A stretch of 64,000 nt of DNA from Halarchaeum nitratireducens (GTDB lineage Archaea; Halobacteriota; Halobacteria; Halobacteriales; Halobacteriaceae). The stretch lies in assembly GCF_014647155.1 (NCBI RefSeq), contig NZ_BMOQ01000007.1:124001-188000 (forward strand), given 5' to 3'. A program made the translations under genes and the position numbers. Under the pieces are notes generated by a model, which worked only from the letters and a program-made list of their open reading frames with translations, did no database searches and had not been told where the DNA came from. Below are positions 16,490 to 30,607 of this stretch, one piece after another (position 1 is the first letter of the stretch; the number at the start of each line of letters is the position of its first letter).

Positions 16490-16914
16490 GTTTGCTCTCG
16501 CTGGCCGTTGATTTCGTCCCGAAGGTCGGTCTGGGCTGTCTCGCTCTCGGAAGTTTCGTCTTAACGGCGAGCGTGCTCGGGAACCCGAACTCCCCAGTCG
16601 GCGTGCTCCGTCCAAGGGTGGGTCGATCGGTAAGCGGCGTACAAGTCGTACTGAGCGCCAGCGCCGGCCTCGGAATCGCGTTTAGCGTGTTACACCTCGA
16701 ACGCACGCATCCACTGCTCCGTTCTGGGTTTCTACCGCGTTGCGACTCGACGTCGTTCACGTTCATCAGACCGCGCTCCTCGGTTTCAATCCCGTTCTGG
16801 GTTTCTACCGCGTTGCGACGAAGTAGTCGGAGTCGACAACGATCGCGTCCGGCCGTTTCAATCCCGTTCTGGGTTTCTACCGCGTTGCGACGTGAGCGTG
16901 TCGGAGTTCCTTGA
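16486..16914 (+). CDS. Small membrane protein whose 3' end runs into the CRISPR array
   Basis: The first 77 residues look like a real protein: MSLLSLAVDFVPKVGLGCLA and VQVVLSASAGLGIAFSVLHL form two helices, and the gene is coupled to the preceding one by an ATGA overlap. From about residue 78 the frame is made of CRISPR repeat and spacer DNA (SGFLPRCD and SIPFWVSTALRR are translated repeats) and ends in the third spacer. The original C-terminus has therefore probably been lost or replaced by the trailer end of array 1. Whether it is expressed is unknown. Confidence 0.5.
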   Translation: MSLLSLAVDFVPKVGLGCLALGSFVLTASVLGNPNSPVGVLRPRVGRSVSGVQVVLSASAGLGIAFSVLHLERTHPLLRSGFLPRCDSTSFTFIRPRSSVSIPFWVSTALRRSSRSRQRSRPAVSIPFWVSTALRRERVGVP

Positions 16915-18062
16915 GGGCGACCGGGTGTTTCAATCCCGTTCTGGGTTTCTACCGCGTTGCGACAGGTCGCGGAACTCGCACAGCACGGCCCCCAGGATGT
17001 TTCAATCCCGTTCTGGGTTTCTACCGCGTTGCGACTTGCCGTTCGCGGTTTGCTTCCGGTACCACACCGCGCTGTTTCAATCCCGTTCTGGGTTTCTACC
17101 GCGTTGCGACAGTGACGCGGATGCCCTCGACTGGCTGCGGATCAATAGTTTCAATCCCGTTCTGGGTTTCTACCGCGTTGCGACCCGATCGCGCCCTTAC
17201 TGATCGCACCGTCGATCGTTTCAATCCCGTTCTAGGTTTCTACCGCGTTGCGACACGACGAGCCCGACGTCGAGGACGTCGTCGATCCGTGTTTCAATCC
17301 CGTTCTGGGTTTCTACCGCGTTGCGACCGAGCAGGTCGCGGACTCGATCGACGAGCAGGGGTGTTTCAATCCCGTTCTGGGTTTCTACCGCGTTGCGACT
17401 GTCAAGTCCATATTGATCTGCGTCGGACCACCACAGCGTTTCAATCCCGTTCTGGGTTTCTACCGCGTTGCGACAATCCGGGAGAAAGCCCAGGAGTTCG
17501 TCGACGACCGTTTCAATCCCGTTCTGGGTTTCTACCGCGTTGCGACGGTCCTCCCCGGCGCGTCCTCGCCACGTGCGAGGTTCGTTTCAATCCCGTTCTG
17601 GGTTTCTACCGCGTTGCGACGGTAGTGGTGCGCTTGAAGCGTCGCGTCGCGGACGTGTTTCAATCCCGTTCTGGGTTTCTACCGCGTTGCGACCTGCATA
17701 CGACTCACGCCGAAACACCCCCATCTGCATGTTTCAATCCCGTTCTGGGTTTCTACCGCGTTGCGACACGTGGTGGACGACGCGCCGAGCGACGAGGAGG
17801 CCGAGTTTCAATCCCGTTCTGGGTTTCTACCGCGTTGCGACGTTCGGGAGTGGCTCGCGGACCAGGACGACCTTGTTTCAATCCCGTTCTGGGTTTCTAC
17901 CGCGTTGCGACTCGCGTTGAATTCACATGGTCGGGCGGGCGTGCGGTGAACAGTTTCAATCCCGTTCTGGGTTTCTACCGCGTTGCGACCCGAGCTGAAA
18001 CGCCTCCTCCTCTCCGAACAGGGGAGTTTCAATCCCGTTCTGGGTTTCTACCGCGTTGCGAC
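16719..18062 (-). CRISPR. CRISPR array 1: 19 repeats, 18 spacers, transcribed leftward
   Basis: The 37-bp repeat reads GTTTCAATCCCG...ACCGCGTTGCGAC on the plus strand. On the minus strand it ends in ATTGAAAC, the usual 8-nt crRNA 5' handle, so transcription runs from 18062 to 16719. Full repeats start at 16783, 16855, 16927, 16999, 17074, 17148, 17218, 17291, 17363, 17438, 17510, 17584, 17657, 17731, 17805, 17875, 17953 and 18026. The leader-distal repeat (16719-16746) keeps only 28 bp and has lost the handle, as terminal repeats often do. The repeat at 17218 has one substitution (TTCTAGG for TTCTGGG). Spacers are 33-41 bp and none repeats. Confidence 0.99.
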
Positions 18063-18178: not shown

Positions 18179-18811
18179 TCATACGCGAAGTTGACCGGCG
18201 AGCGTCGGAGAGACGTGGCGCGTTTTCCCCTCCATCCACGTCTCGACAGCGCCATCGGCCTCAAGTGCATCGAGATGTCGGCCGACGGTACTCCGAGATT
18301 TATCAGTCTCATTGGAGAGCTGGGGGAGTGTCATTTCTTCAGCAGTAGAGACGAGATAGCGGAGCGTATCAAGGGTCGCATCCGATGGACGACTCATTAG
18401 ATTCGGAATCGTGAGCTCCTCGATCTCTTCGTCCACGTCTCTGAACTGAAGAGCGAGGTCAACGACGGTCGGTCGAGCAATCGCAGCGACGGTCAACGGC
18501 AGGAAGATTTCTCGCGGCCCCCCATCGAAGTTGAGTACGACAGCTCCATCTGCCGCCTCTAGGATGTCGACACACTCTAACACGGCTGTCTGAAACGATC
18601 CGTAGCTGATCTCCTCAACGACGATATCCGATCCAGGGCCGAGTTCGTTGACGGTCTGTTCGACGTCTCGGATTGCGTTCTTCGCCCGGTCGCTCGTGTC
18701 GTCGTGCGGTCGGAGGAGAACGACAACGTCGTCCGCATTGAGGCCGTTGTTGAGGATCGGGCGCATCACGCGTGGGCTGTGATGCCCGATCGTCGAGACG
18801 TATGTGCGCAT
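18179..18811 (-). CDS. csa3: CRISPR-associated CARF-HTH regulator Csa3
   Basis: This 210-residue protein has an N-terminal CARF-type Rossmann domain (MRTYVSTIGHHSPRVMRPIL, then VVLLRPHDD and a conserved VLNFDGGPREIFLPLTVAA block). A C-terminal winged HTH follows (EEMTLPQLSNETDKSRSTVG, HLDALEADGAVETW). That is the Csa3 layout; family members bind cyclic oligoadenylates or related ligands and regulate cas genes or array expression. It is divergent from cas6 across 174 bp and lies directly upstream of, and parallel to, array 1. Read-through into the array and control of the cas promoter are therefore both possible (inference). Confidence 0.88.
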   Translation of the reverse strand: MRTYVSTIGHHSPRVMRPILNNGLNADDVVVLLRPHDDTSDRAKNAIRDVEQTVNELGPGSDIVVEEISYGSFQTAVLECVDILEAADGAVVLNFDGGPREIFLPLTVAAIARPTVVDLALQFRDVDEEIEELTIPNLMSRPSDATLDTLRYLVSTAEEMTLPQLSNETDKSRSTVGRHLDALEADGAVETWMEGKTRHVSPTLAGQLRV

Positions 18812-18896
18812 ACGTTCGCTTGCAGTCGAGTGTGACTAAACGGTTTGGCTTCGATATAGTGCAACTGAACGTCTAGTATTTCACATACACAAATAC
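18799..18896. promoter_or_regulatory. csa3-cas6 divergent promoter region with two palindromes
   Basis: CGTATG-N4-CATACG (18799-18814) covers the csa3 start codon, and GTATTT-N9-AAATAC (18876-18896) lies between the two genes. The region is AT-rich compared with its surroundings. Csa3 is an HTH protein encoded next to it, so these palindromes are candidate autoregulatory or cas-operon operators. This is inference from position and symmetry. Confidence 0.35.
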
Positions 18897-18985
18897 GTTT
18901 GCATAACCACGAAAAGATTCAATAGGGTGACCGGTACAGATGTGATCGTGAATCGACACACGATTACCCTGCTTCGTGAGGTGTC

Positions 18986-19834
18986 ATGCGTCGGGTCGAC
19001 TTAACGCTTGAGCCGAAGGGGTCATTCCCGGTGCCGACCGCGAACGGCTACCAGATCTACGGGGCCGTGCTCTCGGCGCTCGACGACGTCGACGAGGACG
19101 TCAGCATGCGCGTCCATGACTCCCCGATCGGGAGCCTGACGAACAGTGGCCTCCTCGGGAGCTTCGACGGGAGCCACCGCGACCACCACAAACGCGTGAT
19201 CCGCGACGAGACCTACGACCTCAAGCTGGGCGTCGCCGACCCACGTGATCAGTCGGTCTTCCAAGCGCTCGCCGACGCGTTCGTCTTCAGCGGCGACACG
19301 CTCGAACTCGCCGACGGCAACTTCCGCGTGCGCGACTTCGCAAGTACGAACACGACGCACGAGGAGCTCCTCACCGAAGCCTCGCAGATCGTCAAGCGGA
19401 ACCACGACACCTTCGAAATCGAGGTGCGCTTCGAGACGCCGACCTGCATCAAGGAGAGTGGAGAGATTACGACGATGTTTCCCCATCGAGGCAGCGTCTT
19501 CCGCTCGCTCCTCCGCAAATGGTCGTCGACGATCCCGGATGAGCGGGCCGACGAACTCGACCTCGCGATGACTCGCGAGGACTTTGAGACGAACCTCATC
19601 GAGAAGCCCGACGCGAACACGTACGAGACGCACAGCGTTCTCGTCAATCGCGGTGAAGACGGTGGCCCAATCCTCCGCCAGGGATTCACCGCCGACTGCA
19701 CCTATCGATTCAAGGGTTCAAGCGAAGCCATCCGGACAGCGGTCACGGCGCTCGCGCTCTTCAGCGAGTACGCGGGCGTGGGCGGGTTCGTCTCTCGTGG
19801 GTGCGGGACGGCCTCTGTGGAGGTGAAAGAATGA
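18986..19834 (+). CDS. cas6: CRISPR pre-crRNA endoribonuclease Cas6
   Basis: This 282-residue protein has the Cas6 double-ferredoxin layout, ending in the glycine-rich RNA-binding loop GVGGFVSRGCGTASVEV (about residues 262-278). FRVRDFASTNTTHEELL and ETPTCIKESGEITTMFPHRG fit the central RAMP region. It cuts the array transcripts to leave the ATTGAAAC handle. It opens the rightward cas block but is separated from cas10d by 288 bp, a gap that carries the CreTA-like sequences described below. A histidine near the N-terminus (H44) may be catalytic; this is not proven. Confidence 0.9.
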   Translation: MRRVDLTLEPKGSFPVPTANGYQIYGAVLSALDDVDEDVSMRVHDSPIGSLTNSGLLGSFDGSHRDHHKRVIRDETYDLKLGVADPRDQSVFQALADAFVFSGDTLELADGNFRVRDFASTNTTHEELLTEASQIVKRNHDTFEIEVRFETPTCIKESGEITTMFPHRGSVFRSLLRKWSSTIPDERADELDLAMTREDFETNLIEKPDANTYETHSVLVNRGEDGGPILRQGFTADCTYRFKGSSEAIRTAVTALALFSEYAGVGGFVSRGCGTASVEVKE

Positions 19835-20122
19835 ACGGTTGTTCGTACGACCCGGACAGAGTTTCAATTCCGCTTGGATTTCTTCGGGGGTCGCACTGGT
19901 CTATATGGTCGGGAGTACACTCGAATGTTGGGTATAGTACAACCTATACAGACGCCACCCTAGAATTTTGCCCTTGGGATACGTATTCTGGTATCGAGGA
20001 AAGGCACGTGGAAACCACAAACAGCCCACAGAGATATAGAGCCGTCGAATACGACGGTAGAATTCGGTACGCCCCGATCAGCTCGGTCGTGCTACGATCG
20101 CAAAGCGCTGTTCGAGTACAAA
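19835..20122. other. cas6-cas10d gap: candidate CreTA-like toxin-antitoxin RNA locus
   Basis: This 288-bp gap has no convincing protein; a 110-codon open frame covers it but has no family look. On the minus strand, 19896-19861 is a degenerate CRISPR repeat ending in a perfect ATTGAAAC handle (25 of 37 positions match array 1 with one gap, 11 of 12 at the handle end). The 'spacer' would begin TCTGTCCGGGTCGTAC. On the plus strand are TATA-like elements at 19932-19936 and 19943-19949, an SD-like GAGGAAAGG (19996-20004) with GTG at 20008, rare AGA codons at 20032 and 20038, and a 6-bp hairpin CCGTCG-AATA-CGACGG (20042-20057). A second repeat-like stretch, GTCGAATACGACGGTAGAA, starts at 20044. CreTA pairs occupy exactly this cas6-cas8 position in type I-B haloarchaea. 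Function here is inferred. Confidence 0.55.
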
Positions 20123-22624
20123 ATGCCCGTTAACGACTCCATCTGGGGAGACCGAGACGTCCACCCGGCCCTCGCCGAGTACCTTGCGGACGTCGACCCA
20201 CGACTCCTCGACGTCGGCTGGGCGTTCGAGTCCGCAAAGAGCGTCAAGTACGATCTCACCGACCAGTCGATGCTCAACCACGTGCGGAACGGCGTGTTCG
20301 CGATCACGTGGCTGAACGAGGTCGCGCCGTCGTTCGACGCGTACGAGCTGGACGACGACGATCTCCGTCGGGTGATCGCGCTGTTCGCCGTCCACGACCT
20401 TCACAAGCTACGCGGCGAGCAGTCGATGGACGAGGAGTACGACATCCCACGAGAGGAGGTCGAAGAGCTCGTCGACGCGCTCGGGGTCGACGAGTTCGGA
20501 CCAAACCTCCGGATCGAGGACTTCCACGCGTCCGCGGTCGACCACGCGAACACGTGGAACTCGAAGCCAGAGCACTCCACTCGAACGTACGGTCGGCTTC
20601 GTCCGTACGTTCGCCTCGCGGACGCGTTCGCGTCCTGTCCCACGCCGGAGTCAGCCGTCGTCGAGCGGAACCAGCGTGCGCTCGACGTCGCGTACCCCGA
20701 TACCGACCTCGAACTCCGCCAGCACACGCTCGACGACGTCAAGGGGATGCTCACGAACCTGCTCAACGGAGCCGTCAGTGAGGCCCTCGGTGATCGCGTG
20801 AGCTACGAGCCGCTCCTCGTTTATCAGGACGGCTGCGTCTATTTGACAGACGGCGACGCTCCCGACGTGACCGTCGACGACGCACTGATCGGGGACGTGT
20901 ATAACCGGCTCCAGTCCACGATCGGTGACTCCCATCCCGCGTACGACGACCACGACGCGCTCGCTGAGAACCTCTCGACGCAGTCGCAGGGCTTCTACAC
21001 AATCAACGATCAAGACTTCTTCTACGCGGGCGCACGGAACCTCCTCTATGCGGTCGCAGTGAAGGCGACGCAGGACGCCGATCCCGACGCCGATCCGACC
21101 GACAGCATGGCGGAGACGATGGAGACACTGAACGACCGGCTCCCCATCGAGATCGATACGACCACGCGCGTCGCTCCGGGATACGCGCGTCTGGTGTACA
21201 CGTTCGAACGGTCGTTCGTCGCTCCGATCGTGGACGCCGGCTCGACGGACGAGGACTCGCTCACGCTCACGTGCCGGCTTTTCGAGGTCGATGAGGGCGT
21301 CCTCGACGGCCTCCGGGAGCTACGGGAGGACGACGACATCGACCTCACGGCCGGCGGCAAGTGGGACTACGCGTACGCGATCGGCCAACACGTCGCGGAC
21401 CGCGCCCGCCGCGACGGCTGGACCGGGAACGTGCCCCGGCACGTCGCGAAACTCCTCGTCACGAACCTCGACGCGCTCGAGGAGGAGTGGGAAGACGCCG
21501 TTATGGCCGCACACACGGGCCGCTTCGAGACCGAGCTCCGCGCGTACATCGGCGATGTCCTCCGCGTCGATGGACAGGCGTCCCCGCCGACCGAGGAGAT
21601 GAACGGCCTCACCGACTCCTTCGAGGAACATCACGCGATCCGACGCGGGAAGACGTGCACGTTCTGCAACCGGGGCACGACGAGCACGCGGAAGAGCGAC
21701 ATGGAGGCGCCGAAGTCGCTCACGACGTTCCAAGCGGGGTACTCGAACCGGATCTCCGCCGACGCCGGCCAGCCGGAGAAACTCCTCGTCTGCACGCCGT
21801 GTCAGATCGAGTTCTCCCTCCGGGAGACCGGCTCGAGTCGTCGCGACGCTGGCCGGATCTTCGTCCACCTCGTCCCCGACTACTTCTACACGCCGACGAT
21901 GTGGGAGTTCTACTCCGAGGAGGTGTTCGCGCAGTTCACTGGCGAGGCGATGACGCGGGTCGGACACCTCGCCTCCGCGATGTTCGACCTCGCGACCAGC
22001 GACGCGGACCGGTCCAGCCCGGCCCCGTGCGCTGAGCTGATCTCGACCGTCCTTCGAGAGTCGACACGCGCCGACGACGGGGGTGGTCGTTCGATGGTCG
22101 AAAGCATCCAACAGGACTTCGAGTCGGACGCCGGGTTCGGAACACAGACCCTCTCATTCTATAAACCGAGGGACAACGACACGGAGTTCCAGTTCTTCGG
22201 CGTCTTCGTCGGCCTCTCGGTCGCGTCCGCGATGGGGCTCCGGGCGTACGTCTCGGAGTCCCCGATTCCCGACCTCAGGGGTCGTGACTTCCCGGAGATG
22301 GCGAAACTCGACGCGGGGTTCTCGACCGTGAGCGGGTTCTACGGTCGGGACATCCCGCTCTCGAAGTTCCGGGAGCGCCTCGGTTCTGCCGCGGCGCTGA
22401 TCGGACTCGGCTACGAGCTCGCGCTCGACGACGCACGGTTCGCGAAGTACCTTCGGATCGTCCGGAACAAGCCGCTTCCCGGATCGTACCTGCTGAAACG
22501 GGCGGTCCAGGGTTCCGATGACGGCGGGGCCGCACGGTACCTGCTCGAGGAAGCGGACTACCTCGACCACCACGGGAATCTCACGAACGACATGCAGATT
22601 ACAACGGAGACTATCAACAGATGA
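20123..22624 (+). CDS. cas10d: Type I-D CRISPR large subunit Cas10d (Csc3) with HD domain
   Basis: This 833-residue protein starts with an HD nuclease domain: LNHVRNGVFA (H53) and LFAVHDLHKL (H91-D92). In type I-D the HD nuclease sits in Cas10d instead of Cas3, which agrees with the HD-less helicase encoded downstream. A zinc-finger-like region has two CxxC pairs (CTFC near 511 and CTPC near 556). The rest fits a degenerate Cas10 palm, and no GGDD cyclase motif is seen. The C-terminal small-subunit portion appears to be missing and encoded by the next gene. The start lies in the CreTA-like gap, with a possible TATA (GATATAGA) at 20033-20040. Its stop overlaps the next gene by 4 bp. Confidence 0.88.
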   Translation: MPVNDSIWGDRDVHPALAEYLADVDPRLLDVGWAFESAKSVKYDLTDQSMLNHVRNGVFAITWLNEVAPSFDAYELDDDDLRRVIALFAVHDLHKLRGEQSMDEEYDIPREEVEELVDALGVDEFGPNLRIEDFHASAVDHANTWNSKPEHSTRTYGRLRPYVRLADAFASCPTPESAVVERNQRALDVAYPDTDLELRQHTLDDVKGMLTNLLNGAVSEALGDRVSYEPLLVYQDGCVYLTDGDAPDVTVDDALIGDVYNRLQSTIGDSHPAYDDHDALAENLSTQSQGFYTINDQDFFYAGARNLLYAVAVKATQDADPDADPTDSMAETMETLNDRLPIEIDTTTRVAPGYARLVYTFERSFVAPIVDAGSTDEDSLTLTCRLFEVDEGVLDGLRELREDDDIDLTAGGKWDYAYAIGQHVADRARRDGWTGNVPRHVAKLLVTNLDALEEEWEDAVMAAHTGRFETELRAYIGDVLRVDGQASPPTEEMNGLTDSFEEHHAIRRGKTCTFCNRGTTSTRKSDMEAPKSLTTFQAGYSNRISADAGQPEKLLVCTPCQIEFSLRETGSSRRDAGRIFVHLVPDYFYTPTMWEFYSEEVFAQFTGEAMTRVGHLASAMFDLATSDADRSSPAPCAELISTVLRESTRADDGGGRSMVESIQQDFESDAGFGTQTLSFYKPRDNDTEFQFFGVFVGLSVASAMGLRAYVSESPIPDLRGRDFPEMAKLDAGFSTVSGFYGRDIPLSKFRERLGSAAALIGLGYELALDDARFAKYLRIVRNKPLPGSYLLKRAVQGSDDGGAARYLLEEADYLDHHGNLTNDMQITTETINR

Positions 22625-23058
22625 CGAACGCGACGAAAGACACCGTCACTGAACTCGCGGAACTGGCTTACGATGCAGTGCGTCCGGTCTACGGGAACGA
22701 CAGCCCGTATGCGATCGAGCGCGTGTTCCGCGAATCGGTGAAGGCAGTGAAGGACTCGAACGAGTTTCGACTCAGTGCAGACGAGGCTGCGCTTCTCGTC
22801 GCCGGTCGGCTCGAAAAACTTCACCAGCGAAGCGAACAAGTGTGGCCGGTACCCGCGGACAAGAGCCGAAGCGGTGACCAGCTGAACGAACGTATCGAGC
22901 GCTACGCGGAGGCGTTTGCCCGGCGGTTACTCGTCGACCGTTGCGAGGGGAAGCCGTCGCTGTTGAAGCGGCGGGCAAACAACCTCGCAGACGGCTTCTA
23001 CGCGGCGACGATCAAGCTACAGCGCGAGACGACCGACGACACCACGGAGACCAACTAA
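22621..23058 (+). CDS. Putative stand-alone small subunit (Cas11d-like) of the type I-D complex
   Basis: This 145-residue, probably all-helical protein (e.g. ELAYDAVRPVYGNDSPYAIE, ADEAALLVAGRLEKLHQRSE, RRANNLADGFYAATIKLQ) is coupled to cas10d by an ATGA overlap and is followed by csc2 after 2 bp. In characterised type I-D systems the small subunit Cas11d is made from an internal start at the 3' end of cas10d. Here the size, helicity and position suggest that this portion is a separate gene. Together the two proteins (833 + 145 residues) equal the usual Cas10d length. I recognise no exact family; the assignment is inferred from position. Confidence 0.6.
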   Translation: MTNATKDTVTELAELAYDAVRPVYGNDSPYAIERVFRESVKAVKDSNEFRLSADEAALLVAGRLEKLHQRSEQVWPVPADKSRSGDQLNERIERYAEAFARRLLVDRCEGKPSLLKRRANNLADGFYAATIKLQRETTDDTTETN

Positions 23059-23060
23059 CG

Positions 23061-24047
23061 ATGTTCGACTACGACACCTACCCCGAACTGGAGCGCGGCA
23101 CCGTTTCCCGAGACGAGATGACGATCGCCCCGGAGAACAACTTCACGAACGTGCTCGTCCTCCGCGAGCTGGAGAGCCACGCGGTCTTCACGACAGACGG
23201 GCAGAGCGCCGATCTCGCGAACGTCGCGGTCGGGTCTGGCGACGACCGCGAGACGTACTCGCCAGGACTGATGTTCATGCGCAAGCAGACGGGGAGCGAT
23301 CGGCGCTTCGGCAAGTCCCTCCAGCGCGACCTGCTTGACACCGAGTGTACGATGCAGGTCAACAAGATGTGTCAGGAGTGCGTCGAGTGCATCCTCTACG
23401 GGAGCGCCGCGAGCGACGACGCCGACCAACAGCTCTCGATCACGTCTCGCGTGATGTACGACACCGCCTACACGCTGCGGGACGCGACTGCGGTGATCGA
23501 CGAGAAGTTCCAGAACGCACCCGGTGACGACTACGCGAAGAGCGCGGAGGCGACGATCCGCGAACCTGACTTCTTCGAACCCGGGACGCTGTTCCCCTCG
23601 GTCATCACGCTCCGCGACGCGACGCCTGAGGAGCTCGCGTTCGTCCTCGGGATCACGGCGAAGAACAAACGCTACGGCGCCGCGACGTCCCGCCTCGGCC
23701 GCGTTAAGAATCACGTCCTCGGCGTCTACACCGGGAGCGAAGAGGGCCCGGCGAACCTCGGGCTGACCCGGGACGTCCTCACGCGCCTCCGTGATACCGA
23801 CGAGACGACTGCCGACTCGATCCAGGACGTCATCACGGCAGCAGCACACGACCCTGAGCTCGTCGGCGACTTGCTTCAGTCCGCCTTCGACGAGCGCGTC
23901 AACGCGGAGCGCGGCGGCCTCGACCTCGAGCGCGTCCCGGACGACACCGTCGACGATTTGCTCGACGCCGCAACGGGCGACTCACTCGCCGACGTCCTCG
24001 AAACGCAACTGGACGCCTCACGCGCGTTCCTCGAACAGACCGACTGA
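23061..24047 (+). CDS. csc2: Type I-D CRISPR backbone protein Csc2 (Cas7d)
   Basis: This 328-residue protein carries the Csc2 hallmark cysteine cluster, MCQECVECILYGS (about residues 102-115). It also has the backbone blocks FTNVLVLRELESHAVF, ITSRVMYDTAYTLRD and ELAFVLGITAKNKRYGAATSR. Csc2 polymerises along the crRNA spacer in the type I-D effector. The ATG at 23061 is 2 bp after the preceding stop. It is followed 3 bp later by csc1, so the effector genes are co-translated. Confidence 0.93.
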   Translation: MFDYDTYPELERGTVSRDEMTIAPENNFTNVLVLRELESHAVFTTDGQSADLANVAVGSGDDRETYSPGLMFMRKQTGSDRRFGKSLQRDLLDTECTMQVNKMCQECVECILYGSAASDDADQQLSITSRVMYDTAYTLRDATAVIDEKFQNAPGDDYAKSAEATIREPDFFEPGTLFPSVITLRDATPEELAFVLGITAKNKRYGAATSRLGRVKNHVLGVYTGSEEGPANLGLTRDVLTRLRDTDETTADSIQDVITAAAHDPELVGDLLQSAFDERVNAERGGLDLERVPDDTVDDLLDAATGDSLADVLETQLDASRAFLEQTD

Positions 24048-24050
24048 GGG

Positions 24051-24806
24051 ATGACGGCAGCACTCGAAGTGACGCTCCGGACGCAGGGAGAGATCTGGTT
24101 CGCGAGCCGCGAGGTCGGCCGGCTCGCGGACACCGAACCCTACTTCCTGAACACGGCGCTCTACTACGCGCTCGGATTCGCCTCCGGCCGCTACGTCGAT
24201 CGCTCGTTCGAACCGACGTACCTCGACGACACCGACGCGATCGCCGACGAGCTGTACGTGACACCGGCGACGCCGTCCGACTCCCCCGGGGTGGGACTCG
24301 CGAACCGGATCACGTCGACGTACAACACGAGCAGCGACGACTACGCGACCATCAACTACTCGGCACAGGAAGACCCGGACGCGAAACGGAATCTCCCGAC
24401 GTACGGTCGGCGTCGCGTGCTCGGCCACGGGAACGAACTCACGTGCTACGTCGTCGGGCGCGGTTTCGATACGGCCGAGCTCGAGGAACTGGTGCCCGGC
24501 TACGCTCGCCTCGGGAAGAAACGCGGCAAAGCCCGCATCGAAACCGAACCGCTGACCGTCTCGGAAGGATCCGGGGAGTTCGATCTCGGTCATCCGATCG
24601 GGGCGTACGACACGAGCCTCACGCCGGTCGGGAACCTCGTAACCAAGCGGATGCGACCGACGCCGCTCGTGATGCAGGCATCGTACGAGGGTTCGTACCT
24701 CGAACTCGAGGTACTAGATCCGGACGGCGAAGACGAAGAGAACGGGGGGGACGACGACGGCATCCGCCTCCCCGCCGACGCGACGTTCCTCGAGACCAAG
24801 CGATGA
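24051..24806 (+). CDS. csc1: Type I-D CRISPR protein Csc1 (Cas5d-type)
   Basis: This 251-residue protein begins with the RAMP strand ALEVTLRTQGEIWFASREVG and has PYFLNTALYYALGF, as expected of Csc1, the Cas5 homologue that caps the crRNA 5' handle. The central and C-terminal parts (GKARIETEPLTVSEGSG, GAYDTSLTPVGNLV) complete the fold; an acidic loop near 225-238 is typical of halophiles. The stop overlaps the helicase start (ATGA at 24803-24806). Confidence 0.9.
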   Translation: MTAALEVTLRTQGEIWFASREVGRLADTEPYFLNTALYYALGFASGRYVDRSFEPTYLDDTDAIADELYVTPATPSDSPGVGLANRITSTYNTSSDDYATINYSAQEDPDAKRNLPTYGRRRVLGHGNELTCYVVGRGFDTAELEELVPGYARLGKKRGKARIETEPLTVSEGSGEFDLGHPIGAYDTSLTPVGNLVTKRMRPTPLVMQASYEGSYLELEVLDPDGEDEENGGDDDGIRLPADATFLETKR

Positions 24807-26950
24807 ACGCTACGCTTCCCCTCTCGGGCGTCGAACTACGACGGCACGACGACCCGACGTATCCGGTCGAAGGGGACACTTTCGAGCCGTACGGCCATCA
24901 ACAGGACCTCCGAGAGTTGTTCGACACCTCGGACGAGTTCCTCGCGGTGAACGACAGTCCGACCGGTGGTGGGAAGACGATGTCGTGGCTCGCTCCCGTC
25001 GTCGAACGGGGCGAGCACGCGCTCGCGGTCTACCCGACGAACGCACTCATCCACGACCAGTACGACCAGCTCACTGACGAACTCGAGGAGAGCTTCCCGA
25101 AGGTGGGAACGGACGTCGAAGTGCTCCCGATCACGGCCGAGACACTCAGGACACGGTACGCAACCGAGTACCCGAAAGCGGAGACGAACGGGGAACGGTT
25201 ACAACGCCTCCTTCGAACGTACGTGCACCAGCGTCAAGGCCCAGTTCTCGTCCTGACGAATCCCGACATACTCGTGATGATGCGGCGGCACATCTACGGA
25301 CGGTCCGGTGATCCGGGGTCACGAATCAGACAGCTCAATGAGCTCGAGACGGTCGTCGTCGACGAGTTCCACCGCGCCGATCGAAAAGAGCAGAACACGC
25401 TCCTGTTCGCGCTCGACGAGATGTACGACCTCCCCGAGTACCAGTGCGCGCTCTCGAAGGTCGTGCTCCTCAGCGCGACACCGACGACGCGTCTCGAACA
25501 CCGCTTCGAGGAAGCGATGAGCGCCTCGTACCACCGCGTGACCGCGCGTCGCGAAACCGTCGAGGAGCGCCCGTTCGACGAGACGCCGACGGACGGATGG
25601 AGTGCAGTCATGCCGCCCGTCGACCTCGACGTCCGCTCGGCGTCGACGTTCGACACCGCGAGTGAACTCCTCGGTGCTGATTGGGAGGACACGGAAGCAT
25701 TCGCCAAGCGGTCTGGACGGACCGTCTTCATCCTCGACGGGATACACGAAGTGGACGAGGTGTATACTCGCCTCTCGAGCGCGCTCGACGAACAGACCGT
25801 CGTTCGAATCGACGGGTTCCATCGCGGCGACGCCGAGGAGAAACTCGACGACTTCGACGTGCTCGTGAGTAACTCCGCCGTCGAAGTCGGTATCGACTTC
25901 TCTGTCGACCGTCTCGTGTTCTCGGCTCCCGACCGGGCGAGTTTCGTCCAGCGCCTCGGTCGTCTCCGAACGAAATCCGAGCGACAGTCCGCCCGCTGCT
26001 ACGTTCCATCGACCGTCGCGGCTTCGATTTCCGAGATCGAACACGACGGTCGTGTCCCGCGGGTGCGTCTCATCGAGGTGCTTGAGGACGCCTATCACGA
26101 CCCTCGGGAGTTCGAATCGTTCGACTGGCGGTACTCGGCAGCCGAAGCATACTACCACGTCGAGCGGCGTGCTCGCGATGCCAACTCAGAACGGGCCGAA
26201 GAGATCCGCGAGAAAGGGTGGGCGCGTATCCTCCGACACTTCAGCGGTGGCGATCCACCGCTCACTCGATCGGACGTCGAAACGCACGCCGACGTCATCG
26301 ACAGTGCGGCCGAACGAACGCTCCAGTGGTACCGCGGCGGCTCGCTACAAGCCCTCGTCTACGACAGGGACCCGGGCGCCGACGAGCCGATCAAGACGTA
26401 CGACCTGTTCTACCTCCTTCGTTACGGGGACGTCGAGTTCTTCTCACGATCTGACTTCGACAAACTCGTCCCGGAGGATCACGCTGACGACGTTTCCCAC
26501 CTCGCGCCGTACGTCACGGGATACTGCACGTACGACGGAACGATCGAAACGAACGACGACGGATACGGACGGAGCGTACGTCTCCAAGCTATCCCGGAGA
26601 TATACAGCTGGCTTCGCGGCGACGGCGCTGACGAGGGAACGCGGAAACCTCGCGAACTCGATGGAATCGGGATTGACGTCGATCCCGACGGAGCGGATCG
26701 GATCACGTCGATCGCCCACCTCCGCGACGAGATGGACGAGGACCTCGACGTGCTCTGCTACGCCCTGAAGGGGAATCCCTCGAAGGTCAAGAACCGATAC
26801 GATCTTGGGACGTTCCTCTTCCTTTACCCACTCACCCTCGGCGACGAGCAGTGGTGTGTCGCACTCGGTCTCGACGCGCTCTATCTTCACTGCGCGGTAC
26901 AGGAGTCGCAGAACGCCGTCGACCTCGAGAGCTTGGGGATCGATCTCTGA
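24803..26950 (+). CDS. cas3: Type I-D CRISPR helicase Cas3' (no HD domain)
   Basis: This 715-residue SF2 helicase has Walker A DSPTGGGKT (about residues 51-59), a DEFH box (about 187), SATP (about 224) and motif VI FVQRLGRLRT (about 378-387). No HD nuclease domain precedes or follows it, which fits type I-D, where the nuclease lies in Cas10d. The start at 24803 overlaps the csc1 stop; a much longer reading frame upstream is an artefact over csc1. It unwinds target DNA after Cascade binding. Confidence 0.92.
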   Translation: MNATLPLSGVELRRHDDPTYPVEGDTFEPYGHQQDLRELFDTSDEFLAVNDSPTGGGKTMSWLAPVVERGEHALAVYPTNALIHDQYDQLTDELEESFPKVGTDVEVLPITAETLRTRYATEYPKAETNGERLQRLLRTYVHQRQGPVLVLTNPDILVMMRRHIYGRSGDPGSRIRQLNELETVVVDEFHRADRKEQNTLLFALDEMYDLPEYQCALSKVVLLSATPTTRLEHRFEEAMSASYHRVTARRETVEERPFDETPTDGWSAVMPPVDLDVRSASTFDTASELLGADWEDTEAFAKRSGRTVFILDGIHEVDEVYTRLSSALDEQTVVRIDGFHRGDAEEKLDDFDVLVSNSAVEVGIDFSVDRLVFSAPDRASFVQRLGRLRTKSERQSARCYVPSTVAASISEIEHDGRVPRVRLIEVLEDAYHDPREFESFDWRYSAAEAYYHVERRARDANSERAEEIREKGWARILRHFSGGDPPLTRSDVETHADVIDSAAERTLQWYRGGSLQALVYDRDPGADEPIKTYDLFYLLRYGDVEFFSRSDFDKLVPEDHADDVSHLAPYVTGYCTYDGTIETNDDGYGRSVRLQAIPEIYSWLRGDGADEGTRKPRELDGIGIDVDPDGADRITSIAHLRDEMDEDLDVLCYALKGNPSKVKNRYDLGTFLFLYPLTLGDEQWCVALGLDALYLHCAVQESQNAVDLESLGIDL

Positions 26951-26951
26951 G

Positions 26952-27575
26952 ATGCCGGGATCGAGCTTCAAGGACGAACTGGTCTACGTGAGTGCGCTGA
27001 ACGAGTTCGTCTACTGTCCCCGTCGATACTACTACCAGCGGTACTACGACGAAATCGGCGAACCGTACGAACTCGTCGACGGTCGCTCGAAACACGAGCA
27101 CGGGTCCCGTCGTGGGAGTTGGGTGACAGAGCGGTACTTCCGCTCGGACGACCTCGGGATGCACGGAAAGATCGACCTCGTGGACACCGAGAGCGGGACA
27201 CCGACTCCGGTCGAGCGGAAGCGCTCGGAGAGCGGATCGTACTATCCGAGTGACGAAGTCCAACTCGCCGGCTACTGTATGCTGCTCGAAGACGCCATGG
27301 ACGAACCCGTGAACGTGGGGTACATCTACCTCTACTCGACTGATACCCGACACTCGGTCCGTATCACACAGGACCACCGCGACACAGTCCGCGAGATACT
27401 ACAGCGAATCCAGACCATGTCCGTCGATTCGATTCCACCGCTGACTCAAACTCCCTCGAAGTGCGAGGCGTGCTCAGCGAGAGCGTACTGTATGCCCGGT
27501 GAAACAGCCGTTCTCTCCCCATCCGAAGCAGAAGGAACTGGATGGGAGGGGACGTCGTCAGGTGACCTGACGTGA
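26952..27575 (+). CDS. cas4: CRISPR adaptation exonuclease Cas4
   Basis: This 207-residue protein has the four Fe-S cysteines of Cas4: C22 (VYCPRRYYYQRY) and CEAC...YC (C172, C175, C181). The RecB-like nuclease core is visible as GKIDLVD (about 74-80) and PVERKRS (about 86-92). Cas4 trims prespacers and selects PAMs together with Cas1-Cas2. It follows cas3' by 1 bp and overlaps the GTG start of cas1. Confidence 0.93.
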   Translation: MPGSSFKDELVYVSALNEFVYCPRRYYYQRYYDEIGEPYELVDGRSKHEHGSRRGSWVTERYFRSDDLGMHGKIDLVDTESGTPTPVERKRSESGSYYPSDEVQLAGYCMLLEDAMDEPVNVGYIYLYSTDTRHSVRITQDHRDTVREILQRIQTMSVDSIPPLTQTPSKCEACSARAYCMPGETAVLSPSEAEGTGWEGTSSGDLT

Positions 27576-28567
27576 AAGAGAGCCAGGGAATGTTCGACGA
27601 CTCGGTCGTCTACGTGACGACGCAGGGCTCGCAGGTCCGTATCGACGGCGGCCAGGTCGTCGTCTACGATGTCGAGGGGGACGACGGCGAACTCGCGTCG
27701 TTCCCCGTCGAAAAACTCGACACGATCAACGTCTTCGGCGGCGTGAACTTCTCGACGCCGTTCGTCGCGACGGCGAACGAACACGGAATCGTGCTCAACT
27801 ACTTCACGCAGAAGGGGCAGTACCGGGGGAGTTTCGTGCCCGAGCGGAACACCATCGCAGAAGTCCGTCGCGCGCAGTACGCACTCAACGACGACGCCGA
27901 GCTCGCCATCGCAAAGGCCATGATCGCGGCGAAGATTCGGAACGCGCGGACAATCCTCTCGCGGAAGGGCGTTCGCGGGACGACCGTGCTCAAGGACCTT
28001 GGCGAGCACGTCTCGACCGCATCGAACAAGGACGATCTCCGCGGCATCGAAGGCGAGGCCGCCGAGCGCTACTTCGACCGACTCGACGAGACGCTCGTTG
28101 ACGACTGGACGTTCGAGACGCGCAGTAAGCGCCCGCCCGAAGACCACATCAACTCCCTGCTGTCGCTGACGTACGTGATGATGAAGAACGAGGTGTTGAG
28201 CGCGCTGCGCTGCTACAATCTCGATCCCTTCCTGGGCGTACTCCACGCTGATCGACACGGCCGGCCGTCGCTCGCGCTCGACCTCGAAGAGGAGTTCCGG
28301 CCGCTTTTCTGCGACGCGTTCGTCACCCGCTTGGTCAACCGCGGGACGATCACGCACGACCAGTTCGGGACCGACAACCGTCTCACCGACGACGGCTTCC
28401 AAGCGTACCTGGACAAGTTCGACGACTACATGGACGAGGAGCTGACACATCCCCACTTCGACTATCGCGTGAGCCGTCGGAAGGCGATCCGACAGCAAGT
28501 GATCCTCCTGCGGAAAGCGATCACAGGTGAACTCGACGACTACCACGCGCTGGAGGTATCGAGATGA
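27572..28567 (+). CDS. cas1: CRISPR integrase Cas1
   Basis: This 331-residue protein carries the Cas1 metal site: E160 in RGIEGEAAERYF, H225 in LGVLHADRHG and D237 in SLALDLEEEFRP. It integrates spacers with Cas2. The GTG at 27572 overlaps the cas4 stop (GTGA); an ATG six codons later (27590, MFDDSVVYVT) is an alternative start close to the usual N-terminus of the family. It overlaps cas2 by 4 bp. Confidence 0.96.
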   Translation: MKESQGMFDDSVVYVTTQGSQVRIDGGQVVVYDVEGDDGELASFPVEKLDTINVFGGVNFSTPFVATANEHGIVLNYFTQKGQYRGSFVPERNTIAEVRRAQYALNDDAELAIAKAMIAAKIRNARTILSRKGVRGTTVLKDLGEHVSTASNKDDLRGIEGEAAERYFDRLDETLVDDWTFETRSKRPPEDHINSLLSLTYVMMKNEVLSALRCYNLDPFLGVLHADRHGRPSLALDLEEEFRPLFCDAFVTRLVNRGTITHDQFGTDNRLTDDGFQAYLDKFDDYMDEELTHPHFDYRVSRRKAIRQQVILLRKAITGELDDYHALEVSR

Positions 28568-28836
28568 GGTTGGCAGTGACGTACGACGTCAGCGACGACG
28601 GGAATCGGCGGCGCGTCTATCGGACGCTCGAACGATACGGCGCGTGGCGACAGTACAGCGTCTTTGAAGTCGATGTCTCGAAGAGCCAGCGGGTCGAACT
28701 CGAAGACGAACTCGAGAGCCACATCGAGCCAGCTGATGGCGACCGTATTCGATTGTATCGACTCTGTGAGGCCTGTCAGAAGGCGACGACCGACCTCGGA
28801 ACGGAGCCACCGGACGAGCAGTCGAACGTTATCTGA
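28564..28836 (+). CDS. cas2: CRISPR adaptation protein Cas2
   Basis: This 90-residue protein has the typical ferredoxin start MRLAVTYDVSDDGNRRRVYR, with D8 as the conserved aspartate, and GAWRQYSVFEVDVS in the second half. It forms the bridge of the Cas1-Cas2 integration complex. It overlaps cas1 by 4 bp and is the last gene before the leader of array 2. Confidence 0.95.
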   Translation: MRLAVTYDVSDDGNRRRVYRTLERYGAWRQYSVFEVDVSKSQRVELEDELESHIEPADGDRIRLYRLCEACQKATTDLGTEPPDEQSNVI

Positions 28837-28953
28837 CGTCCCCCCTTCGTGGACCTTTTTCAAAGCCGTGTACAGCAGGGGTCCACGAACAACCGCCGCT
28901 CTCTCCTACCGTCAGAGAAAACTATAGGTGCTATCCCCGACAAAACACCCCCT
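28837..28953 (+). promoter_or_regulatory. Leader of CRISPR array 2
   Basis: This 117-bp segment lies between the cas2 stop and the first repeat. It carries the inverted repeat TTCGTGGACC (28846-28855) with GGTCCACGAA (28880-28889), and TCAGAGAAAACTATAGGTGC with its TATA core about 30 bp before the first repeat. The same elements, in the same order and spacing, are present in the leader of array 1. It is both promoter and integration leader by position. Confidence 0.85.
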
Positions 28954-30607
28954 GTCGAAGCGCGGTAGAAACCCAGAACGGGATTGAAACGGAGAGGATC
29001 GCCGCAATCGTCCTGCGCGGTCGTCGCGTCGAAGCGCGGTAGAAACCCAGAACGGGATTGAAACCGGATATCCAGGAAGCCACCGTCCACGCGAGCGCCG
29101 GTCGAAGCGCGGTAGAAACCCAGAACGGGATTGAAACAGTGGGCTCCGACACCGCTGAACGGCGGAAGTGCGGTCGAAGCGCGGTAGAAACCCAGAACGG
29201 GATTGAAACATCCCCCCGATAATCGACGAGAGAGTCCGCTGCACGCGTCGAAGCGCGGTAGAAACCCAGAACGGGATTGAAACCCCCCATCATCGTCGAG
29301 GCCGACGACCGCCGCGAGCGGTCGAAGCGCGGTAGAAACCCAGAACGGGATTGAAACGTGCCACTCTGCGGTGTCTCGACAACCTCGACGTGTCGAAGCG
29401 CGGTAGAAACCCAGAACGGGATTGAAACACGTCTTCGAGTAGTCCTACGTAGCCGGCTCGCTGGGTCGAAGCGCGGTAGAAACCCAGAACGGGATTGAAA
29501 CAGGATTCCCTGTAGGTCGTGGGGGATTCGGATGGTCGTCGAAGCGCGGTAGAAACCCAGAACGGGATTGAAACAGGGGGAGGACCCCCAGGACGACGGC
29601 GGGAGTTCGAGTCGAAGCGCGGTAGAAACCCAGAACGGGATTGAAACACCCCGAGCCGGACCCCGTAGTCGACCCCGTTGATGACGGGGCCGGGTCGAAG
29701 CGCGGTAGAAACCCAGAACGGGATTGAAACCGCTTGACGACGCCGACGACGTCGAGGACGCCGACGTCGAAGCGCGGTAGAAACCCAGAACGGGATTGAA
29801 ACATCGACCGGACGACGAGCTGGTCAGCCGCCGGGTTCGGTCGAAGCGCGGTAGAAACCCAGAACGGGATTGAAACTTGCCGGGGCCCTGACGGCTGGAC
29901 ATGAGGATGCGGTCGAAGCGCGGTAGAAACCCAGAGCGGGATTGAAACCGTACTGGCTCGCCGCCTCACGCACCCGAGCGAGCTGTCGAAGCGCGGTAGA
30001 AACCCAGAACGGGATTGAAACACATCGGCGCACCGTCCTCGTTGTCGTTGTCGGCCTGTCGAAGCGCGGTAGAAACCCAGAACGGGATTGAAACCGGGCG
30101 CATCGGCGGCTCGACGACGTCGGTGGAGGGCGTCGAAGCGCGGTAGAAACCCAGAACGGGATTGAAACACTATCTCTCGTGGTCGATCGGCGATCAGGAC
30201 TATTGTCGAAGCGCGGTAGAAACCCAGAACGGGATTGAAACGTGGGGCGCAGACGCTCGGCCAGGATCGCGAAACCGAGTCGAAGCGCGGTAGAAACCCA
30301 GAACGGGATTGAAACTGTAGTCGGGTGAGTTCGGCCCGGACGAGCCGAACCGTCGAAGCGCGGTAGAAACCCAGAACGGGATTGAAACACGGGACGCGCG
30401 ACGTCGACGTCGTCGGTCCCGACGGGTCGAAGCGCGGTAGAAACCCAGAACGGGATTGAAACCGCACCTCCCGGTCTGGGAGGTTCGGAAGCGGGTGGTC
30501 GAAGCGCGGTAGAAACCCAGAACGGGATTGAAACCCGTCGGACCGGGCGACCTCGTCGTCCTGACGGGGTGTCGAAGCGCGGTAGAAACCCAGAACGGGA
30601 TTGAAAC
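28954..30607 (+). CRISPR. CRISPR array 2: 23 repeats, 22 spacers, transcribed rightward
   Basis: The 37-bp repeat reads GTCGAAGCGCGGTAG...GAACGGGATTGAAAC on the plus strand and ends in the ATTGAAAC handle. It differs from the array 1 repeat at two positions near the 5' end (GTCGAAGC versus GTCGCAAC). Repeats start at 28954, 29028, 29101, 29173, 29247, 29321, 29392, 29465, 29538, 29611, 29694, 29766, 29840, 29912, 29985, 30058, 30132, 30205, 30279, 30352, 30426, 30498 and 30571. The repeat at 29912 has AGAGCGGG for AGAACGGG. Spacers are 34-37 bp except one of 46 bp (29648-29693). The final repeat is intact. Confidence 0.99.

What the first reader, a model, noticed from the sequence alone, without database searches (positions are those of the whole stretch)
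19835..20122. Candidate CreTA-like RNA toxin-antitoxin locus inside a type I-D cas operon
Seen: a 288-bp non-coding gap splits cas6 from cas10d in an otherwise gapless operon. It holds a degenerate CRISPR repeat (19861-19896, minus strand) with a perfect ATTGAAAC handle, followed by a 'guide' that begins TCTGTCCGGG. That guide matches 13 of 18 bases, including positions 1-5, of a minus-strand site at 19952-19935. The site covers the TATA-like element AACCTATAC of a possible rightward promoter. About 30 bp later come an SD-like GAGGAAAGG, a GTG, rare AGA codons and the hairpin CCGTCG-AATA-CGACGG. Known: CreTA pairs occur between cas6 and cas8 in haloarchaeal type I-B systems; CreA is a crRNA-like guide that makes Cascade repress creT, whose RNA sequesters a rare tRNA. 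Inferred: the same logic here, but guarding a type I-D effector. The site next to the target reads GCG, not a classic PAM, so the pairing is tentative.
Basis: partly seen in the sequence, partly recalled or inferred. Interest (0 to 1): 0.9.

Follow-up and report, generated by a model that had tools for sequence, protein, structure and literature searches.

The report
CRISPR-guarding RNA module, type I-D
Between two genes of a salt-loving archaeon's type I-D CRISPR system lies a small module in which a crRNA-like guide, kept matched to a nearby promoter-like site in five species, probably makes the CRISPR machinery silence a toxic RNA, so that losing the CRISPR system would harm the cell; the guide-target pairing is well supported, the toxin is inferred.

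Summary
The 288-bp cas6-cas10d gap carries a degenerate repeat, an intact 5' handle, a guide and a target. The same layout occurs in Halarchaeum rubridurum, H. acidiphilum, Natrialba asiatica and Halococcus dombrowskii; the other haloarchaeal I-D loci checked lack it. Guide and target sequences differ between lineages but change together. Pairing covers nt 1-5 and 7-11, with position 12 mismatched in every pair, the published CreA rule. The window's own copy is weaker (8/10 seed positions). The same scan recovers the known Haloarcula hispanica creTA as its only hit. Not foreseen: the whole gap is an open reading frame in all five species, from an ATG overlapping the cas6 stop to a stop at the cas10d start, yet with little amino-acid constraint; the H. 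hispanica gap has no open frame. I read this as a CreTA-type module for type I-D, embedded in a translational relay. Toxicity, promoter and CreA RNA are untested, and CreR-like autoregulation of cas10d remains a serious rival. New variant of a known kind.

The parts
18986..19834 (+). cas6 (processing nuclease, upstream neighbour)
   Evidence: TIGR01877 hit (E 1.9e-7, below its cutoff); 85-93% identical Cas6 in the other carriers
19831..20133 (+). relay reading frame: 100 codons open from the ATG overlapping the cas6 stop to a TAA inside the first codons of cas10d
   Evidence: the only stop-free frame in all five carriers; P 0.004-0.01 per locus; low GC3 and weak amino-acid constraint
19825..19860 (-). 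guide (psiS) of the creA-like RNA, TCTGTCCGGGTCGTACGAACAACCG..., overlapping the cas6 end; 3' end not defined (36 nt assumed)
   Evidence: sequence; covariation with the target
19861..19896 (-). degenerate CRISPR repeat (psiR) with intact 5' handle ATTGAAAC at 19861-19868
   Evidence: gapped alignment to array repeat, P<0.001
19935..19952 (-). target protospacer; seed reads from 19952 leftward, TCTGTATAGGTTGTACTA
   Evidence: same 37-nt offset from psiR in all five species
19953..19955 (-). PAM GCG next to the target
   Evidence: GCN in all five modules and at the protospacers of four window spacers
19919..19962 (+). inferred rightward BRE/TATA and start region (CTCGAATGTTGGGTATAG...), covered by the 36-nt R-loop
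   Evidence: conserved ACTCGAAnnTT in the alignment; promoter function inferred, not tested
19996..20058 (+). creT-like segment: SD-like GAGG, GTG 20008, AGA-TAT-AGA 20032-20040, hairpin 20041-20058
   Evidence: tRNA-Arg(UCU) found as one gene
20123..22624 (+). cas10d (Csc3), downstream neighbour; its start overlaps the relay frame
   Evidence: TIGR03174, E 1e-140
28951..30607 (+). CRISPR array whose spacers at about 29877, 30463 and 30535 match viral sites with GCG
16710..18062 (-). second CRISPR array; the spacer starting near 18025 matches a viral site with GCA

Best explanation
The gap is a CreTA-type addiction module attached to a type I-D CRISPR system. A leftward crRNA-like RNA (creA) made from the degenerate repeat and the guide is cut by Cas6 and loaded into the type I-D effector. 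By pairing at guide positions 1-5 and 7-11 beside a GCN PAM it holds the effector on a site that covers the inferred promoter of a rightward transcript. Pairing is too short for interference, so the effector represses without cutting. If the effector is lost or blocked, the rightward transcript is made and sequesters scarce tRNAs through rare codons after its start codon. The module sits inside a frame kept open so that ribosomes leaving cas6 can continue to cas10d. Shown by sequence: repeat, handle, guide, target, covariation, PAM, open frame. Inferred: RNA production, promoter, repression, toxicity, relay function.
For: Five carriers with the same layout. Seed pairing is 10/10 in four and 8/10 in the window; the H. 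rubridurum guide fits its own target 10/10 but the others' only 6/10. Positions 6 and 12 are the free or mismatched ones, exactly the published CreA rule (PMC8501985). GCN flanks all five targets and the protospacers of four distinct window spacers; the GC dinucleotide frequency in these viral contigs is 0.085. The known H. hispanica creTA gives the same signature as the only hit of the same scan. In the N. asiatica group the internal ORF begins ATG ATA GCT AGG/AAG ACN AAR YTA AGR, rich in TTA, AGA, ATA and AGG, the four rarest codons of the window. Their tRNAs (Arg-UCU, Arg-CCU, Leu-UAA) were each found once in the genome. The downstream segment diverges between lineages while the guide-target part stays, as for known CreTA.
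Against: The window's own seed has a mismatch at position 7 and a G.T wobble at 8; single seed mutations abolish repression in the type I-B case. H. rubridurum shows no rare-codon cluster. No structure conserved in the N. asiatica trio was found. No terminator was seen between the putative creT and cas10d. The rightward promoter is inferred by eye. No second repeat was found, although most creA genes have two.
Confidence: 0.6

Rival explanations
1. CreR-like autoregulation: the guide represses an internal promoter that drives cas10d and the genes after it, so that the effector tunes its own supply. No toxin is involved.
For: The target lies upstream of cas10d in the same direction, without an obvious terminator between. 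crRNA-like autorepressors are reported in types I-B, I-E and V-A (PMC13131331).
Against: Module-free relatives run cas6 straight into cas10d. The frame stays open upstream of the internal promoter, which only makes sense if the long transcript from the cas6 promoter is still translated through to cas10d. Rare-codon clusters and lineage-specific downstream segments have no role in this reading.
Confidence: 0.22
2. CrePA-like: the repressed product is a small protein toxin encoded by the 41-85-codon downstream part of the frame.
For: The frame is open in all five species, and a CRISPR-repressed protein toxin is known (CreP, PMC12737573).
Against: No Pfam family above its cutoff and no PADLOC hit. 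Proteins of the lineages do not resemble each other; dN/dS is 0.65-0.75 against 0.14-0.24 for cas6, without a third-position excess; GC3 about 0.5 against 0.85.
Confidence: 0.08
3. Decayed module: in the window the pair is a relic of a once functional module, active only in relatives.
For: Two imperfect seed positions and a gap about 100 nt shorter than in the relatives.
Against: Positions 13-16 and 18 still pair in the window; guide and target changed together at positions 1, 2, 14 and 15 relative to H. acidiphilum; handle and PAM are intact.
Confidence: 0.08

Closest known systems
Haloarcula hispanica creTA (type I-B, between cas6 and cas8b)
   Same: Place between cas6 and the large effector subunit; single degenerate repeat beside cas6 on the strand opposite to cas genes; seed pairing at 1-5 and 7-11 with 6 and 12 mismatched; PAM-flanked target (PMC8501985).
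   Different: Type I-D effector with PAM GCN instead of TTC; by my reading of the sequence the H. hispanica creT lies on the same strand as creA, whereas here the candidate creT is divergent from creA; the H. hispanica gap has stops in all frames, here one frame is open.
Acinetobacter type I-F creTA
   Same: Mini-ORF oriented divergently from creA and downstream of the creA target, in a cas intergenic gap (PMC10097628).
   Different: Bacterial type I-F, PAM CC, two repeats, longer pairing, non-canonical seed.
Halobacterium hubeiense creTA
   Same: Same seed rule; rare-codon mini-ORF shown to sequester a rare tRNA (PMC8501985).
   Different: Upstream of the cas operon, two repeats, one shared promoter, type I-B.
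CreR guides
   Same: crRNA-like guide partially complementary to a promoter in the cas locus (PMC12737573, PMC13131331).
   Different: No toxin segment; described for I-B, I-E and V-A in the papers held here; represses cas promoters.

Membership tests
CreTA (type VIII toxin-antitoxin) | ectopic degenerate repeat with intact 5' handle in a cas locus | tested here: met
   four of five handles perfect (ATTGAAAC), H. rubridurum ATTGAAAT
CreTA (type VIII toxin-antitoxin) | guide pairs partially with a nearby PAM-flanked site, seed 1-5 and 7-11 | tested here: met
   10/10 in four species, 8/10 in the window; covariation; PAM GCN
CreTA (type VIII toxin-antitoxin) | the target lies in the creT promoter | tested here: inconclusive
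   conserved BRE/TATA-like sequence under the target; no transcript data
CreTA (type VIII toxin-antitoxin) | creT is a toxic RNA (start codon, rare codons, stem-loop in the characterised archaeal cases) | tested here: inconclusive
   rare codons in the N. asiatica group, AGA codons and hairpin in the window, none in H. rubridurum; toxicity not testable
CreTA (type VIII toxin-antitoxin) | Cas6-dependent CreA and toxicity when the effector is lost | not testable with these tools
   needs small-RNA sequencing and transformation assays
CreR | guide represses a cas promoter, no toxin gene | tested here: inconclusive
   site is upstream of cas10d; the cas6 promoter region has only a non-conserved 9/10 site with ACA flank
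CrePA | repressed product is a KilA-N-type protein toxin | tested here: not met
   no Pfam family above cutoff, no PADLOC hit
Type I-D CRISPR-Cas | Cas10d/Csc3, Csc2, Csc1, Cas3' operon | tested here: met

The most novel reading that the evidence does not exclude
One device does two jobs. When the effector runs low, the de-repressed transcript is translated through its rare-codon start into cas10d, first restoring the effector; only if that fails does the transcript build up and stall the cell. The open frame and the stop/start overlap at cas10d would be the wiring for repair before suicide.
Probability: 0.2. Interest if true: 0.85.

Novelty: new variant of a known kind. Interest (0 to 1): 0.62.

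Why it matters
In the papers held here CreTA modules are worked out for types I-B and I-F only; none reports one for type I-D, whose effector is a hybrid of type I and III. A guarded type I-D would show that the addiction strategy follows a different effector with another PAM. The open-frame embedding suggests a solution to a general problem, how a regulatory RNA module can sit inside a translated operon, and also the kind of creT that the CreTA authors thought possible but did not find: rare codons at the start of a longer ORF (PMC8501985). The GCN PAM would be useful for work on haloarchaeal type I-D.

Tried and rejected
A guide site at the cas6 promoter (18940, 9/10 seed) was rejected: flank ACA, not conserved in relatives. 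A second repeat downstream of the guide was looked for by eye only; none seen. Rfam found nothing in 18700-20400. RNAalifold on the N. asiatica trio found no conserved structure. The bacterial sigma-70 promoter scan found none and is not suited to archaea. Phage searches with the H. rubridurum array and one of the two H. dombrowskii arrays gave no protospacer. One N. asiatica spacer matches virus HJTV-4 with flank CCT and a mismatch at position 1; it does not support GCN and was set aside as a diverged site. The module DNA was not found outside the I-D loci in 391 haloarchaeal genomes; a 24-nt match in G099 was judged chance. A plain protein-gene reading of the gap was rejected on substitution pattern and GC3. 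Two other type I-B loci fetched as controls had no cas6-cas8b gap.

Full report
Setting. The window belongs to a haloarchaeal genome of the genus Halarchaeum by relationship (its Cas10d is 94% identical to that of H. rubridurum). NCBIfam names the genes from 18986 to 28836 as a type I-D operon with Cas6, Cas10d, Csc2, Csc1, Cas3', Cas1 and Cas2, and a divergent Csa3 upstream (the Cas6 hit is below its curated cutoff). Two arrays share the repeat GTCGCAACGCGGTAGAAACCCAGAACGGGATTGAAAC except for a few bases at its 5' end. The 288-bp gap between cas6 and cas10d is real.

Is it chance? In the window alone the evidence is modest. The repeat-like stretch has 21/37 ungapped matches, no better than the best of a shuffled 64-kb window, though its gapped alignment beats 1000 shuffles of the gap. 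The guide-target seed scores 8/10 (P=0.17) and the 14 informative positions 12/14 (P=0.003).

Comparison decides it. Cas10d searches of the haloarchaeal class and three families gave about two dozen type I-D loci. Three other species carry a gap of the same kind: H. rubridurum, H. acidiphilum, N. asiatica; a fourth, Halococcus dombrowskii, came from a plasmid search. In the nearest relatives without it, Haloferax sulfurifontis and locus L012, cas6 runs directly into cas10d. In all five carriers the target lies 37 nt beyond the repeat, on the same strand as the guide. Seed pairing is complete in four. The guides are not the same: H. rubridurum reads CCTATACTGGT and its target reads the same, while the N. 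asiatica group reads CTTGTxTGGGT with matching targets; the H. rubridurum guide fits a foreign target at only 6 of 10 positions. Relative to H. acidiphilum, all four seed changes in the H. rubridurum guide are mirrored in its target. Position 6 is free and position 12 is mismatched in every pair, the flipped-out positions of a type I effector. This is the rule measured for H. hispanica and H. hubeiense CreA (PMC8501985).

Positive control. The same kind of scan on the H. hispanica cas6-cas8b gap (handle match relaxed to 5 of 8) finds one hit with a seed of at least 9/10: handle GTTGAAGT, guide CCTTGGGCTATT, target CCTTGTGCTATA, flank TTC, 10/10 seed, 6 and 12 mismatched. A first pass that required 7 of 8 handle bases missed it.

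PAM. Known type I-D PAMs are GTN or GTH (PMC10212523). I matched 310 spacers to about 1.06 Mb of phage and IMG/VR haloviral DNA. Four window spacers have credible sites: one to phage ChaoS9 (4 mismatches, GCG), one to L054 and L064 (4 and 6, GCG), one to L077/L078 (7, GCG) and one to L078 (7, GCA); the last two have perfect seeds. Reversed-spacer controls gave only two matches at 8 mismatches and none better. The background frequency of GC is 0.085. The modules are flanked by GCG, GCG, GCC, GCG and GCT. GCN is therefore the likely PAM of this system, from few sites; one N. asiatica spacer disagrees.

The gap as reading frame. In all five carriers one frame, and only that one, is open from an ATG overlapping the cas6 stop (AATGA) to a stop at the cas10d start; the probability is 0.004-0.01 per locus under dinucleotide shuffling. 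Three lineages are roughly independent. Yet amino acids are weakly constrained: NG86 dN/dS is 0.65-0.75 in the trio against 0.14-0.24 in cas6, changes are spread evenly over codon positions, and GC3 is about 0.5 against 0.85. The gap of H. hispanica has stops in every frame. I infer selection for passage of ribosomes from cas6 to cas10d, which the module would otherwise interrupt. The frame includes the part upstream of the inferred internal promoter, so the long transcript from the cas6 promoter must still be the one that is translated through; that argues against the module being only a cas10d promoter.

The toxin side. The four rarest codons of the window are TTA, AGA, ATA and AGG; tRNA-Arg(UCU), tRNA-Arg(CCU) and tRNA-Leu(UAA) were each found once. 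In N. asiatica and H. dombrowskii the first nine codons of the internal ORF hold four of these, in H. acidiphilum three plus CTA. Among the first eight codons most differences in the trio are synonymous and stay within rare codons. The window has GTG and then AGA-TAT-AGA before a stable hairpin. H. rubridurum has no such cluster. So a tRNA-sequestering toxin is plausible for four and unsupported for one. No protein family above cutoff was found for the frames.

Verdict. That there is a functional, effector-directed guide at this site I hold at about 0.9. That its purpose is CreTA-type addiction I hold at 0.6; autoregulation of the CreR kind is the main rival at 0.22. In the papers held here no CreTA for type I-D is described; the original 2021 Science paper and its lists could not be read, so earlier mention is possible.

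Noticed in passing
window 20123-23058; L038 6395-9330: Cas10d is split in two overlapping ORFs; the 145-aa second one covers the C-terminal part of the Csc3 profile (positions 814-946), as in H. dombrowskii. It may be a separate small subunit (Cas11d-like).
   Followed up: no
window spacers near 29877, 30463, 30535, 18025: Likely PAM GCN for this haloarchaeal type I-D, unlike GTN in cyanobacteria.
   Followed up: partly
L039, L040 (Halarchaeum sp. CBA1220 plasmids), L041 (Halostella pelagica): Near-identical repeats and Cas1 (85-93%) but no recognisable Cas10d by tblastn; in CBA1220 an unnamed protein of about 830 aa stands in its place, suggesting swapped or divergent effectors on a shared adaptation module.
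   Followed up: no
window 18921-18940: Site in the csa3-cas6 intergenic region matching the guide seed 9/10, flank ACA, not conserved in relatives.
   Followed up: yes
window 19932-19949: GTATAG-TACAAC-CTATAC inverted repeat at the target, perhaps a two-way promoter serving creA and creT; seen only in the window.
   Followed up: no
L029 (G237): A genome of the same genus keeps only a fragment of cas10d.
   Followed up: no
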